Shown here: piece by piece, positions 49,527 to 54,636 of the stretch | How positions within the stretch are numbered: the first letter of the stretch is position 1 | Layout of the letters: every line of letters begins with the position of its first letter | Assembly (NCBI GenBank): GCA_016842045.1 | Contig: JAEVEY010000044.1 | Span: 1-59,754, forward strand | Source of the DNA: Candidatus Thermoflexus sinensis | GTDB taxonomy: Bacteria; Chloroflexota; Anaerolineae; Thermoflexales; Thermoflexaceae | Length of the DNA stretch: 59,754 bases | Reading direction: 5' to 3' | Notes under the pieces: generated by a model | The model's database searches: none | What the model saw: the letters and a program-made list of their open reading frames with translations, nothing else | What the model was told of the DNA's origin: nothing | Made by a program: the position numbers and the translations under genes

Positions 49527-49991
49527 CTACCGATCCTGCCCTTCCACCGGCTCCTGCATCCGATCGGGAGGGCATAGGAAGGGGATGCCATCGCGCCCGG
49601 CATGGTAAGCATATCGCTGCCCCTGGGCCTCCAGGATCACCCGATAGCCGGGGGTGAGGACCTGCAGATACATCCGTCCGGGCTCCGGGCACCCCAGGCT
49701 GCTATCCGGCCAGGTCACCGCCCGCGCCTCGACCACCCGGATCTCATCGATCCGAAGGCCCAGGCGGGCGGCCAGATCCTGCCGGGCTCGCTCGCTGATC
49801 TCCCTCAGAGGAACCTCCACGGTTGGACCTCCTGGGCCCTTCAGAGGCGGGGCTGGAGTGGGAAACGCGGGGGCCGGAAGCGGCGAGAAACCTTCCAGGG
49901 GGGAAACCCCCGGGGTTGCCGGCGCGCAGGCCCCCAGCCAGATCCCTAAGAACCCGAGCCCCACGATTTGGAACCATCGCCAGCGCTTCAT
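49527..49991 (-). CDS. Small lipoprotein of unknown function
   Basis: The protein has 154 residues. A signal peptide with lipobox LGAC at about 17-20 is followed by a Pro/Ala-rich spacer and a ~75-residue domain (ARQDLAARLGL, TWPDSSLGCPEPG, YLQVLTPGYRVILEAQGQRY, AYHAGRDG). This domain pattern (W-x-DSSLGCP-x-PG ... TPGY) recurs in secreted proteins of Chloroflexota and cyanobacteria but has no known role to me. AGGAGG is seven bases ahead of ATG 49991. Last gene of the NurA-HerA unit. Confidence 0.75.
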   Translation of the reverse strand: MKRWRWFQIVGLGFLGIWLGACAPATPGVSPLEGFSPLPAPAFPTPAPPLKGPGGPTVEVPLREISERARQDLAARLGLRIDEIRVVEARAVTWPDSSLGCPEPGRMYLQVLTPGYRVILEAQGQRYAYHAGRDGIPFLCPPDRMQEPVEGQDR

Positions 49992-50083
49992 CGATAGGCC
50001 TCCTGGGAGGATTTCATCCAGAAAGACGATCCCAGGAAGCCATGGGTTCCTGTTTCCTGCACCTTCTGCTTTGGAAGCGGGGT

Positions 50084-50103
50084 GGGCAAGGCATGCCTTG
50101 CCC
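50084..50103. repeat. 20-bp palindrome GGGCAAGGCATGCCTTGCCC
   Basis: Perfect palindrome between herA and the lipoprotein gene; sister of 15432-15451. Both share the AGGCATGCCT centre and CCC-type flank. Confidence 0.6.
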
Positions 50104-50114
50104 CTACCCAATCC

Positions 50115-51821
50115 CTAATCCTCACCCTCCCCCCGCATCACGTTCAGGTAGTTCTCCACCAGATCCTCCCGTTGATTGCCCTGGGCCAGCTCCTTATAGA
50201 ACGAGGCGTCATAGGATCGGGTCCGCACCACCACCGGCATGGGCACCGCGTGCCCCAGAAGCAGGGCCTGCTGTTTGGTCTCCAGACGGGCCAGCACCTC
50301 GCGCAGCCGGGAGGCGCCGGAGATCCCCGCCAGGGCCGCCCGCACATCCTCCTCATGATCCAGCAGGCACAGCACCCGCGTCCCAATCTGGGAGAGCACC
50401 TCGCTGTCGATCTGGCTGGGCCGCTGGTCGACGATGAGCAGCGTGACGTTATACTTGCGCAATTCCCGGGCGATGGTCCCGAACACGGTATGCTCGGCGA
50501 TGCCCGGCTGCAGGAACTTGTGGGCTTCCTCCACGACGATCACCAGATGCGGCGGCTCCCGACCTGGATCTCCCAGGGCGGCCTCTTTGCGGCGGACGTA
50601 TTCCGCGTGGATGCGTCGGGTCAGGTAGTTGGCCACCAGCACGTAGGCGGCCATGTCGTTGCCGTAGCGGCCGAATTCGAGGACCACGCTCTGGCCATTG
50701 AGGATGCGGGAGAGGATCGCCTGGGCCGCGTCCTCGGAGGTCTGGGGGACCAGAAACCGGAACCGGTGGAAGAGGCCCAGCTTCCGCTGAAGGGCCCCCA
50801 GGGTGCTGCTGGTGATCAGGTCCCGCTCCACCAGCTCCGTCAGCGGATCCGCTATGGCTTCTTCCTCCCCTTCAACCGGCGCGCGCTCCTCCTCCAGAAG
50901 GATCCGTAGCCAGTCCCGGCCCAGCCGTCGCCGCAGCATGTAAAGGGCGCCAATCTGAACCTCGCTCAGGCCGATCACCCCGCGCAAAAGTTCCACATCT
51001 TCCGGCTCGATCTGGTCGTAGCCGATGCGGATCACGAGATCATACCGGCTGTTGCGGCGCCGGGAGGATTCCTCATCGAGGGTGGCGATGACGACGCGGG
51101 AGAAGCATCCGGGCAGTTGCTTCAGGCCATTCACCAGCCCTTCCTCGCCCGGCGCGCTCCATCCGTATTCGTTGTGCATATCGAACACCAGGGCCACCGA
51201 GGCGTTGTGGCGGATGACCCCGGCTAACAGCAGCCGGGTGAGGAACGTCTTCCCGGTCCCGCTCTTCCCAAACACGCCGCTCGAGCGCTCCACGAAGCGA
51301 TCCAGGTTGAGAGGGATGTGCACCCCCGGCATGTCCAGGGGCTCCCCGATAACGAAATAACGATCCTCCCGCCCTTTCACGCGAGGCCGGAAGATCGCGT
51401 GGACCTCTTCCTCGGTGGCCTCATAGACCGGGGAGAAGTGGGCGGGGACGGTTTTCACCGGCCGGGGGAGCGGATCGTTCTCCTCGAGGACCAGCATCGG
51501 CTGGACGTGGATCTGGCCGAAGACCCCGATGCCCGCCATCATCTCCCGGATCAGCGGATCGTCCGGATCCGGAGGCATCCGGGCGAGGTCCGGGTTGGCG
51601 CTGTCCAGCCGGATGTCCGTGATCATCCCGAAGAAGCGCCGTCGGTAGCCGCGGATCACCACGTAGCGCCCTACCGCCAGACCCTCGATGGCGATGCGGG
51701 GGTCCAGCTTGACCACCAGCCCTTCCGAGAGGGAGCCTCCGATCACCATCCCCAGCCGGCGTGCCTCCATAGGAGAGGGAGCCGATCGGGCTCCAAAGAC
51801 CACATCCGGTTCTGAAGCCAT
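50115..51821 (-). CDS. herA: HerA-like DNA helicase/translocase ATPase
   Basis: Hexameric FtsK/HerA-type ATPase that in Archaea works with NurA in DNA end resection. It has 568 residues. An N-terminal HAS-barrel (about 20-75) precedes the ATPase core with Walker A GKSGTGKT (185-192) and Walker B LVIVVEEAHKF; the arginine-finger region DQRPSQIDSEVLSQIGTR and C-terminal motif follow. GGGAGG lies ahead of ATG 51821. It is in one leftward unit with the nurA-like gene and a separate HAS-barrel protein. Confidence 0.88.
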   Translation of the reverse strand: MASEPDVVFGARSAPSPMEARRLGMVIGGSLSEGLVVKLDPRIAIEGLAVGRYVVIRGYRRRFFGMITDIRLDSANPDLARMPPDPDDPLIREMMAGIGVFGQIHVQPMLVLEENDPLPRPVKTVPAHFSPVYEATEEEVHAIFRPRVKGREDRYFVIGEPLDMPGVHIPLNLDRFVERSSGVFGKSGTGKTFLTRLLLAGVIRHNASVALVFDMHNEYGWSAPGEEGLVNGLKQLPGCFSRVVIATLDEESSRRRNSRYDLVIRIGYDQIEPEDVELLRGVIGLSEVQIGALYMLRRRLGRDWLRILLEEERAPVEGEEEAIADPLTELVERDLITSSTLGALQRKLGLFHRFRFLVPQTSEDAAQAILSRILNGQSVVLEFGRYGNDMAAYVLVANYLTRRIHAEYVRRKEAALGDPGREPPHLVIVVEEAHKFLQPGIAEHTVFGTIARELRKYNVTLLIVDQRPSQIDSEVLSQIGTRVLCLLDHEEDVRAALAGISGASRLREVLARLETKQQALLLGHAVPMPVVVRTRSYDASFYKELAQGNQREDLVENYLNVMRGEGED

Positions 51822-52010
51822 TGATAACCTCCCGTCAGCGGACGATCCTTCCGCTCGATTTTTGGGGCTGGCAAAGGCCGGTGGCGCGGCCTTCCTCCGC
51901 TCTGAGCGATGAATAGGGTGAGCCGGGCGCCGAAGGCGGCCGCTCCCCGTGAAAATATGACGCGCACCTGAGGAGACCGCTGAAGGCGGCCTCCTACCCG
52001 CATCCGGGAC

Positions 52011-52640
52011 TTAAGGCGCTTCCGCCGCCATCCGGATCCGGCGCAGCACCTGGCCCAGCCGGGTGGGCTCGTCGGCCAGCAGCCGCACCAGCTCCCGCCC
52101 GACCTGGATCAGGAAATCCTGCCGACGGGGGCCGGCCCGGATGGCGGCGGCGGTGCGGATGACCGCGGCGAGCACATCATCGGAGGTCTCCCGGGCCTCC
52201 ACCAGCGTGCGGATGAAATCCGGCTGTTCGGTGAATCGCTGGATCTGGGCCGGCGGACAGGTGTAAACCGGCTCCAGCAGGGCCGGGGGCTGATGGGGAA
52301 TGCCGTAATAGGTGAAGCGGTCCCGTATATAACCCAGCGTCAGCACCCCAATCTGGACCGGGATGTTACGGTTCTCGATCATATCCTGCTGGATCTCCTG
52401 CGGCGGGACATCCTGGAGCGCTACCATGCGGGTGAGCTCATCGCCCTGCAGGACCAGATCGTAGATCACCCCGATGATGGTCGTCTCGCCCCGGGCGGTC
52501 TGGACGAAGGAGCCGAAGGCCGGGATGTCCTCGGCGGTCAGCCGACAGCCCACCAGAAAGGTGCGGGCGCTGGATTCGATCACCCGCCCGATGAAGGCAG
52601 GCCCTGTGGATGGATTCCAGCGAGCTCGTGGGGTGGCCAT
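52011..52640 (-). CDS. Stand-alone HAS-barrel-like protein
   Basis: The protein has 209 residues. The N-terminal ~70 residues (FIGRVIESSARTFLVG, IPAFGSFVQTARGETTIIGVIYD) look like the HAS-barrel that normally caps HerA-type ATPases. The rest is alpha-helical (TLVEARETSDDVLAAVIRTAA, LVRLLADEPTRLGQVLRRI) and unfamiliar. It lies between nurA and herA on the same strand, so it is likely a third component of the complex. Assignment is by pattern only. Confidence 0.65.
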   Translation of the reverse strand: MATPRARWNPSTGPAFIGRVIESSARTFLVGCRLTAEDIPAFGSFVQTARGETTIIGVIYDLVLQGDELTRMVALQDVPPQEIQQDMIENRNIPVQIGVLTLGYIRDRFTYYGIPHQPPALLEPVYTCPPAQIQRFTEQPDFIRTLVEARETSDDVLAAVIRTAAAIRAGPRRQDFLIQVGRELVRLLADEPTRLGQVLRRIRMAAEAP

Positions 52641-52733
52641 CTCACACTCCTGCTCTGAATGTGTAGCGCCCCATTCCCCAATGAACGGGCTGACATATGG
52701 GGCTTACGCCGCTGGCCTCTGGGTTCCCTTCGC

Positions 52734-53921
52734 TTATCCTCCCAGCCACTCCTTTTGCCGGGCCTTGGCGGAGATCGAGACGCGCAGGCCGCGCCGGAGG
52801 AGGGCCTCCTGAATCATCTGCTCCAGTTGCCTTCGCTCCTCCGAGCGGATGCGGGCCAGCTCATGAGCCCGGGTGAGCAGATACGGATAGGGGGCTTCCG
52901 CCAGGATGCGACACTGATCCCAGATCGCGCGATGCAGCCGATCCAGGCGAGCCCGATCCTGGGCCACCCACTCGGGGATCTCCACGCGGGCGAGGTGCGG
53001 GCGGCCCTCCGTTCCCACGTTGAGATAGAAGAACAGGAGCCGGTGGCCCTCCTGACCCAGGTGATCGTTGATCGGCCAGGTGGGCGCGAAGAGGGCGGAA
53101 CGCTCCCCAGGCGCCAGCAGCTCCGCGAAGAGCGCCCGATCCCGTAGCTGCCCGAAGGGATAGTCCGCCACCTTCTCCCGGGTAATCTCATCCAGCACCC
53201 CCAGAGCCAGCAGGCGAAGCACCGCATGGCCTGTCGGCCGATCCACGTATCCGGCAATGGCGCCTCCTGTTTCCCTGGCCGATTCCAGGGCCTCCACCGC
53301 GCGTCGGAAGAGCTCACGATAGCGTTCAGCCGGGACAGCGGCGAAGGGCTCGCCACGGGCCAGGGCCCACGGGAGCAGCAGTCCATCCGCCAGCCCGACC
53401 GGCGGGCCGAAGGGATCGCCGGCCCGCTGGACCATCGCCGCCGCCAGCTGCTCCAGCTCCTGGATATCCCGCTCTGCCTCCAGGTCATTGAGGGCACGCA
53501 TCTCCCCGTCCTCGGTGAAAAGCTCCTCCTCCCGATACCAGAACACCAGGTGGTGCCGCGTTTGAGGCGGGGCGCCGGAGCCGGAGCGCATCTCGATGAG
53601 GCCGATGTTCAAAACAAAGTAGGGAACGGTCCCATGGCGGTCCGGATAGATCTGGGAGCCATCGGCCGCGATGACCAGAACCTGAGGCTGTTCGGATGGT
53701 AAGGGGAATCGGGCCGCGAGGGGCTCCCCCCATGGGATCGCCCCCCGCCATCCGGCTCGCAAGGCCTCCCGGGCCATCTGTTGCAGGCGCTCCAGATCCT
53801 CGGAGAAGCGGTGGAGCAGGCTCAGGGCATAGCGCAGGGTTGGAGGATGGGCGCGAAGGCGATCCCCTGCGTAATCCGCCATCTCCTGCACATATCGTCT
53901 CACCTGTCGCCAATCCAGCAT
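52734..53921 (-). CDS. nurA: NurA-domain nuclease
   Basis: The protein has 395 residues. The NurA fold is shown by VLVIAADGSQIYPDRH, where Asp87 is a metal ligand, and by a later GGAIAGYVDRPTGHAVLRLLAL segment with another conserved Asp. NurA is a 5'-3' exonuclease/endonuclease that partners HerA. It is the first gene of the leftward unit; a minus-strand TATAAT (complement of 53972-53977) about 50 nt upstream is a plausible -10 with a poor -35. Confidence 0.82.
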   Translation of the reverse strand: MLDWRQVRRYVQEMADYAGDRLRAHPPTLRYALSLLHRFSEDLERLQQMAREALRAGWRGAIPWGEPLAARFPLPSEQPQVLVIAADGSQIYPDRHGTVPYFVLNIGLIEMRSGSGAPPQTRHHLVFWYREEELFTEDGEMRALNDLEAERDIQELEQLAAAMVQRAGDPFGPPVGLADGLLLPWALARGEPFAAVPAERYRELFRRAVEALESARETGGAIAGYVDRPTGHAVLRLLALGVLDEITREKVADYPFGQLRDRALFAELLAPGERSALFAPTWPINDHLGQEGHRLLFFYLNVGTEGRPHLARVEIPEWVAQDRARLDRLHRAIWDQCRILAEAPYPYLLTRAHELARIRSEERRQLEQMIQEALLRRGLRVSISAKARQKEWLGG

Positions 53922-54636
53922 CGCGCCCCCTCTCGCCGGGTTCGAAAGCTCCGGCTCTTTTCCTGGTTCCCATTATAAGAGGGAGTTGCAGGATGGGAAG
54001 TCCCCTTTCATCCCCCTTCGCTCCCTGGGCCGGAGCCTGCGGCATAAACCCATTTCACTTTGACGGATTGGGCGTGGCCGGATATAATAAGGGTGCTTCT
54101 GCCGCTTGAGGCATCAACCCCGAAAATCACCAGGGCCCATCCGAGTTAGGGGTTACGCGCCGGATCTCCCCAGAGACAGGACGGGGGGATCACCCCTGTG
54201 GCGGGACAACGATTTTGCGACCTCCTCCCTGGGGGAGACCGGCGGGCATGTCCGGGAAGCATGCGGTCAGACTCCCAAAGGATTTTCTTCTCCCTCGTGC
54301 CTTTCCCTCCGGGGAGTCTAAGTTTCCCTCCTCCCCGTGGCCTTTTGAGCCATAGGGAGAGGGAAAGAGAGGAGGGGTCCTCTGCCCGGTATGGGAAAGG
54401 CGTCCCGGTAGCCAGCGGCGTGACCCTGGAGGCCATGGGTTATCGGGGTGTTCCCTCCTGCGAGGTGGACGGGGCTGGGGGAGTGTGGGACGGTCGAAGG
54501 TCATCCGGTTGGCCCCCAAAGCCCTCTCAGGGAATGGATGGCTCATCGGGTCAGGTATATCTCAGCTCTCCGGTCTGGTTCCCCAGCGGGCATGATGTCA
54601 GGGCGGTAATCCATCCTTATAAAGAGTGGAACGAAC
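53922..54636. other. Gap between nurA and rho, mostly long rho leader
   Basis: A 715-bp gap. A rightward promoter at 54060-54088 predicts a rho 5' leader of about 540 nt. Within it lies a CCCTCCTCCCCGTGGCC...GCCATAGGGAGAGGG-type inverted repeat (about 54326-54368). A TATAAA at 54619-54624 could be part of a second, nearer promoter. No known riboswitch was recognised. Short open frames inside have no convincing ribosome sites. Confidence 0.5.
54060..54088 (+). promoter_or_regulatory. rho promoter
   Basis: TTGACG (54060-54065), 17-bp spacer, perfect TATAAT (54083-54088). It is the only near-consensus rightward promoter in the gap. Confidence 0.75.

What the first reader, a model, noticed from the sequence alone, without database searches (positions are those of the whole stretch)
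50115..53921. Bacterial NurA-HAS-HerA module with a separate HAS-barrel protein
HerA already carries an N-terminal HAS-barrel, yet a second stand-alone HAS-like protein with a helical tail lies between nurA and herA. This could be an adaptor or an anti-phage variant of the resection machine; bacterial HerA-based systems are known in defence. No other defence gene is nearby.
Basis: inference. Interest (0 to 1): 0.55.

Follow-up and report, generated by a model that had tools for sequence, protein, structure and literature searches.

The report
Third gene of bacterial NurA-HerA operon
Between the genes of a known DNA-end-trimming nuclease (NurA) and its motor (HerA) lies a small, usually unannotated gene whose product is shaped like the motor's docking domain; it travels with the nuclease through nearly a whole bacterial phylum and in salt-loving archaea, which suggests an overlooked third part of a DNA-break-repair machine.

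Summary
In a Thermoflexus-type Chloroflexota genome, nurA (53921-52734), a 209-aa gene (52640-52011) and herA (51821-50115) lie in that order on the minus strand. The middle protein misses Pfam's HAS-barrel cut-off (15.4 vs 25.2 bits). Its predicted fold nevertheless matches the N-terminal HAS domain of solved HerAs (E 1e-6, probability 1.0), and 12 of 21 orthologs hit that same family weakly.

It is not a local oddity. Among 251 Chloroflexota genomes a HAS gene (two divergent types) occurs in 146 of 160 NurA-positive genomes and 3 of 91 others, usually beside nurA, herA or both. The second type sits in mre11-rad50-nurA-HAS-herA operons, and the same five-gene order occurs on three haloarchaeal plasmids, where the gene is called 'hypothetical protein'.

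Best reading: a dedicated third subunit of the NurA-HerA resection machine, probably docking at the HAS/NurA interface. It keeps the helix that HerA uses to grip NurA, with a near-invariant Asp/Glu-x3-Arg motif. Contact is inferred, not shown.

An anti-phage role is not supported here. It stays open for haloarchaea, where a complete Shango system directly precedes the operon on two plasmids.

The parts
52734..53921 (-). nurA, 395 aa nuclease; DGS and YVDRP motifs present
   Evidence: PF09376 E 1.6e-24; motifs read from the translation
52011..52640 (-). stand-alone HAS-like gene, 209 aa: barrel (about 16-127) plus helical tail (130-206)
   Evidence: PF09378 E 0.02, 12/21 orthologs hit it, AlphaFold2 and Foldseek to HerA, conserved family A1
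52419..52445 (-). codons 66-74 of the HAS gene: helix in the place of HerA alpha1, with D67 and R71
   Evidence: R71 in 50/50 and D/E67 in 49/50 unique orthologs; helix 66-74 in the model but low pLDDT at 69-77
50115..51821 (-). herA, 568 aa: own HAS barrel (24-74), DUF87 ATPase with Walker A FGKSGTGKT and Walker B VVEEAHKF
   Evidence: PF09378 1.3e-5, PF01935 1.2e-25; motifs read from the translation
51822..52010 (-). 189-bp gap between HAS stop (TAA) and herA ATG, same reading frame, no start codon; GGAGG before herA ATG
   Evidence: no Rfam match
53972..53999 (-). promoter-like site TTCCCA-16-TATAAT about 50 nt before nurA
   Evidence: consensus scan, 10 of 12 positions; consensus match only

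Best explanation
The middle gene encodes a dedicated third subunit of the NurA-HerA DNA-end-resection machine. It is an ATPase-less relative of HerA's N-terminal HAS domain plus a helical tail. Most likely it sits at the HAS/NurA end of the HerA hexamer. There it would use the helix that HerA itself uses to grip NurA, and help couple the two-fold NurA dimer to the six-fold HerA ring or control loading and firing of the nuclease. Shown here by computation: fold, conservation, near-obligate co-occurrence with NurA, and gene adjacency. Inferred: physical contact, position in the complex, and the coupling or loading role. Sub-estimates: functional partner of NurA-HerA 0.9; physical subunit 0.7; located at the HAS/NurA interface 0.5; specifically a symmetry or loading adaptor 0.3.
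For: Fold: HAS domain of HerA for both types. Co-occurrence: HAS type 1 or 2 in 146/160 NurA-positive and 3/91 NurA-negative genomes; type 1 shares 98 genomes with its HerA subfamily (100 and 102). Adjacency: of 100 type-1 genes, 44 lie between nurA and herA, 37 have nurA only, 12 herA only, 7 neither; type 2 is next to nurA in 21 of 51, and in the 14 unlinked cases fetched it directly precedes herA. Joint absence: G296 lacks all three although congeners G086 and G212 have all. Resection context: mre11-rad50-nurA-HAS-herA in type-2 Chloroflexota and in haloarchaeal plasmids. Interface: HerA contacts NurA through HAS alpha1 and nearby loops (PMC12977600) and acidic residues (PMC9960219); the HAS protein keeps a helix there with near-invariant D67 and R71. 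Overlapping or near-overlapping HAS-herA genes in some lineages and in haloarchaea.
Against: No contact, structure or activity is shown. The alpha1 region is modelled with low confidence. Deinococcus and Thermococcus NurA-HerA work in vitro as two proteins (PMC9960219, PMC12977600). The direct profile match to this HerA family is not significant. Co-occurrence counts are not corrected for shared ancestry. 14 NurA-positive genomes lack a detected HAS gene, several of them with weak NurA hits or incomplete assemblies.
Confidence: 0.6

Rival explanations
1. Nuclease restrainer: the HAS protein mimics HerA's docking face, binds NurA when HerA is absent and keeps it inactive or stable; HerA displaces it at a DNA end.
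For: 37 type-1 genomes have HAS next to nurA with herA elsewhere; the HAS protein keeps an alpha1-like helix; G026 and G082 keep HerA but lack both NurA and HAS.
Against: In type 2 the HAS gene stays with herA when the operon splits (14 of 14 fetched), and 12 type-1 genomes have HAS beside herA only.
Confidence: 0.15
2. Anti-phage variant: the trio degrades invading DNA rather than repairing host breaks.
For: A complete Shango system (SngA 1e-89, SngB 1e-170, SngC 1e-272) directly precedes mre11-rad50-nurA-HAS-herA on two haloarchaeal plasmids. The T. kodakarensis study suggests HerA-NurA may destroy foreign DNA (PMC12977600).
Against: Chromosomal and near-universal with NurA in Chloroflexota; housekeeping neighbours in Thermoflexus; 77 type-1 neighbour genes show no consistent defence family; HerA far below anti-phage cut-offs; linked to mre11-rad50 in relatives; NurA is less often found with AddAB-like proteins (24/160 vs 52/91).
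Confidence: 0.1
3. DNA-binding or recruitment factor: the HAS barrel or the helical tail binds DNA or another repair protein and brings NurA-HerA to the break.
For: [quoted passage not shown] The tail is conserved (L188, L195, L199, E183), while the HerA matches cover only about 120-160 columns. RecJ-HerA and SSB-NurA/HerA interactions are reported (PMC4663267, PMC8910471).
Against: No direct evidence for a partner or for DNA binding; compatible with the best explanation rather than excluding it.
Confidence: 0.1
4. Decayed or split HerA piece without function.
For: HAS and herA are in one frame, separated by a TAA and 63 codons, in this window.
Against: HerA is complete with its own HAS barrel; the middle family is conserved as a separate gene in about 149 of 251 genomes and in archaea, with invariant residues.
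Confidence: 0.02

Closest known systems
Archaeal and Deinococcus NurA-HerA resection complex
   Same: NurA nuclease and HerA ATPase with its own HAS barrel, in one operon; Mre11-Rad50 linked in archaea and in type-2 relatives
   Different: A third, stand-alone HAS-like gene; no such subunit appears in the structures described in PMC9960219 and PMC12977600
HAS-barrel domain (PF09378)
   Same: Fold and the weak sequence match to the family
   Different: Stand-alone, below Pfam's cut-off, with a helical tail in place of the ATPase
Anti-phage HerA systems (HerA-SIR2, HerA-DUF4297)
   Same: HerA-type ATPase working with a separate effector
   Different: Partner here is NurA, an extra HAS gene is present, HerA is far below the anti-phage model cut-offs, and the locus is not in a defence neighbourhood
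TdtA-NurA of Thermus thermophilus ICEth1
   Same: nurA-like gene directly before a HerA-family gene in an operon
   Different: Mobile element with a type IIG enzyme, needed for DNA donation; no HAS gene mentioned in the passages read (PMC5365140)
Haloarchaeal plasmid mre11-rad50-nurA-'hypothetical'-DUF87 operons
   Same: Homologous HAS gene in the same place between nurA and herA (E 1e-29 to type 2)
   Different: Linked to mre11-rad50, on plasmids, two of three preceded by Shango

Membership tests
NurA-HerA end-resection system | NurA nuclease domain with its catalytic motifs | tested here: met
   PF09376 87.2 bits vs cut-off 21; DGS motif in the sequence
NurA-HerA end-resection system | HerA ATPase with Walker motifs and own HAS barrel | tested here: met
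   PF01935 91.4 bits vs 23.2; PF09378 25.7 vs 25.2
NurA-HerA end-resection system | nurA and herA in one operon | tested here: met
   Same strand and order, conserved in relatives; co-transcription itself not tested
NurA-HerA end-resection system | Linkage to mre11-rad50 (archaeal form) | tested here: not met
   sbcD lies on another contig here; linkage is found in type-2 relatives
NurA-HerA end-resection system | Physical NurA-HerA complex that resects DNA ends | not testable with these tools
   needs biochemistry
HAS-barrel family PF09378 (middle protein) | Score above Pfam's gathering cut-off | tested here: not met
   15.4 bits vs 25.2; so not filed as a Pfam member
HAS-barrel fold (middle protein) | Barrel fold of the HerA N-terminal domain | tested here: met
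   Foldseek E 1.2e-6, probability 1.0, all 50 listed hits HerA-type; type 2 likewise. Predicted model, not a solved structure
Anti-phage HerA systems | HerA above the curated anti-phage model cut-off | tested here: not met
   NF042943 76.2 bits vs 800; NF042944 66.6 vs 850
Anti-phage HerA systems | Defence effector partner or defence-type neighbourhood | tested here: not met
   Partner is NurA; neighbours are permeases, rho, thiolase; 77 type-1 neighbours lack a consistent defence signal. Contrast: Shango linkage in haloarchaea

The most novel reading that the evidence does not exclude
The Mre11-Rad50-NurA-HerA resection machine of Chloroflexota and of some haloarchaea has a previously undescribed third core subunit, a stand-alone HAS barrel that sits between HerA's HAS crown and the NurA dimer. 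On haloarchaeal plasmids this five-gene machine has been joined to the Shango defence system, so one resection engine serves both repair and defence.
Probability: 0.3. Interest if true: 0.8.

Novelty: new variant of a known kind. Interest (0 to 1): 0.6.

Why it matters
NurA-HerA is a model for how a nuclease and a ring motor trim broken DNA, and published structures treat it as two proteins. A third gene, present in 146 of 160 NurA-positive Chloroflexota genomes and on haloarchaeal plasmids, would mean that in these lineages one part of the machine has been overlooked. It makes directly testable how the two-fold nuclease is matched to the six-fold motor and how the machine is switched on. It also gives a likely role to a 'hypothetical protein' found in many genomes.

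Tried and rejected
Split or duplicated HerA fragment: rejected, because HerA is complete with its own HAS barrel and the middle family is conserved and distinct. Profile homology between the middle family and this HerA family: tried, not significant. PDB sequence search with the middle family: no hit even at E 10. In-frame TAA between HAS and herA as a broken fusion: rejected, since each gene has its own ribosome-binding-like site and relatives keep two genes, overlapping in some lineages. Mobile or viral origin: plasmid search with the window protein gave only two chance-level Azospirillum hits; phages, viral contigs and PHROGs gave nothing. RNA element in the operon region: no Rfam match. 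Search of archaeal genomes by kinship was not possible, so breadth outside Chloroflexota is known only from plasmids. The 2004 survey of the FtsK-HerA superfamily and the 2004 herA paper are not in the library, so an earlier mention of a solo HAS gene cannot be excluded.

Full report
What is there. The window lies in a Thermoflexus-type Chloroflexota genome (nearest named relatives Ca. Thermoflexus japonica and Ca. T. tengchongensis). On the minus strand, nurA (53921-52734), a 209-aa gene (52640-52011) and herA (51821-50115) follow each other. Domain searches confirm NurA (E 1.6e-24) and HerA (DUF87 1.2e-25, own HAS barrel 1.3e-5); the middle protein hits only PF09378, at E 0.02. The same block with the same neighbours (permease genes, a lipoprotein-like gene, rho, thiolase) is found in Thermoflexus relatives.

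The middle protein. Twenty-one sequences align well. Twelve of them hit PF09378 (best 0.0033), the only family with more than one hit. AlphaFold2 on that alignment gives pLDDT 83.7: a beta-barrel, then a tail of helices. Foldseek against the PDB returns HerA-type proteins in all 50 listed hits, best E 1.2e-6 and probability 1.0, over about 120-160 columns of much longer chains, which fits their N-terminal domain. A direct profile comparison with this HerA family is not significant, so the paralogy looks old. The protein has no P-loop in its sequence.

It goes with NurA and HerA. In 251 Chloroflexota genomes the type-1 middle gene is in 100 and its HerA subfamily in 102, with 98 shared. Of the 100 genes, 44 lie between nurA and herA, 37 have only nurA beside them, 12 only herA, 7 neither. 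Many NurA-positive genomes without it turned out to have a divergent form: ORFs of about 200 aa found after nurA align as A3, match type 1 by profile at E 8e-10, and give the same fold, with the T. kodakarensis HerA-NurA structure as best hit. Counting both types, the gene is in 146 of 160 NurA-positive genomes and 3 of 91 others. Where type-2 HAS is not next to nurA it directly precedes herA in all 14 such loci fetched. One genome (G296) lacks all three genes while two congeners keep all three. These counts are not corrected for shared ancestry.

Link to Mre11-Rad50 and to archaea. A NurA search of plasmids hit halophilic archaeon DL31. Its operon reads metallophosphoesterase, SMC ATPase, NurA, 'hypothetical protein', DUF87. 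The hypothetical protein matches type 2 over its full length at E 1e-29, and tblastn links a Chloroflexota type-2 protein to it at 2e-15. The same order occurs in Halobaculum and Natrinema plasmids; a Halorussus plasmid has HAS-herA. Searching back, mre11 and rad50 precede nurA in all eight type-2 Chloroflexota loci with linked nurA-HAS first examined and in several more. So mre11-rad50-nurA-HAS-herA is one arrangement shared by Chloroflexota and haloarchaeal plasmids. The window's own type-1 locus does not have this linkage; sbcD is on another contig.

Repair or defence. For repair: phylum-wide in Chloroflexota, linked to mre11-rad50 in relatives, and NurA negatively associated with AddAB-like proteins (PDDEXK_1 on ORFs of 700 aa or more: 24/160 NurA-positive vs 52/91 NurA-negative; a lower bound because the match list was truncated). 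The own genome has only short PDDEXK_1 ORFs. Against defence here: HerA far under the anti-phage cut-offs, no consistent defence genes among 77 type-1 neighbours, no phage or viral relatives. For defence elsewhere: in Natrinema zhouii and strain DL31, SngA, SngB and SngC of Shango lie directly before the five genes on the same strand.

How it may work. In the solved complexes NurA contacts several HAS domains of the HerA ring, in T. kodakarensis through helix alpha1 and the loops before it (PMC12977600); in Deinococcus three acidic residues of HerA are needed for binding NurA (PMC9960219). The middle protein has a helix in the matching place (66-74), with R71 in 50 of 50 and D/E67 in 49 of 50 unique orthologs, although the model is uncertain there. 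I infer that it docks at the NurA/HAS interface as a third subunit and helps to match or control the two partners. A restrainer of NurA and a recruitment factor are the main rivals. None of this contact is shown.

Novelty. No paper found in the library describes a third HAS subunit of NurA-HerA, but the key 2004 comparative survey is not held. I rate it a new variant of a known kind.

Noticed in passing
L100:10830-24959 and L102:10803-24791 (Natrinema zhouii NZ_CP084885.1; strain DL31 CP002989.1): Complete Shango (SngA, SngB, SngC) directly followed on the same strand by mre11-rad50-nurA-HAS-herA on two haloarchaeal plasmids; possibly a joint defence operon. The library search found no paper that links Shango with NurA-HerA.
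   Followed up: partly
L101:18057-20123 (Halobaculum plasmid NZ_CP119991.1): In place of Shango, a 688-aa phospholipase D family gene precedes the same five-gene operon; weak PADLOC match to ZacB (6e-7).
   Followed up: no
window 49527-50111, minus strand: A lipoprotein-like ORF starts 4 nt after herA and is kept in the Thermoflexus relatives at 56-99% identity; no Pfam match. Possibly co-transcribed.
   Followed up: no
Control genomes: PF09376 (NurA) rings in Haloferax volcanii over the cut-off, while a review states that HerA and NurA are not present in H. volcanii (PMC7776575).
   Followed up: no
L123-L136 (type-2 HAS-herA pairs away from nurA): In these lineages the operon appears split, with HAS-herA in one place and nurA elsewhere, in several genomes next to rad50; type 1 splits differently, as nurA-HAS and herA.
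   Followed up: partly
G026, G082 (phylum sample): Two genomes keep the HerA of this subfamily but show neither NurA nor HAS; both carry AddAB-like proteins.
   Followed up: no
L099:2710-2871: PLSDB lists a predicted 'DES-1 beta-lactamase' of 162 bases at the end of a haloarchaeal herA gene; looks like a spurious prediction.
   Followed up: no
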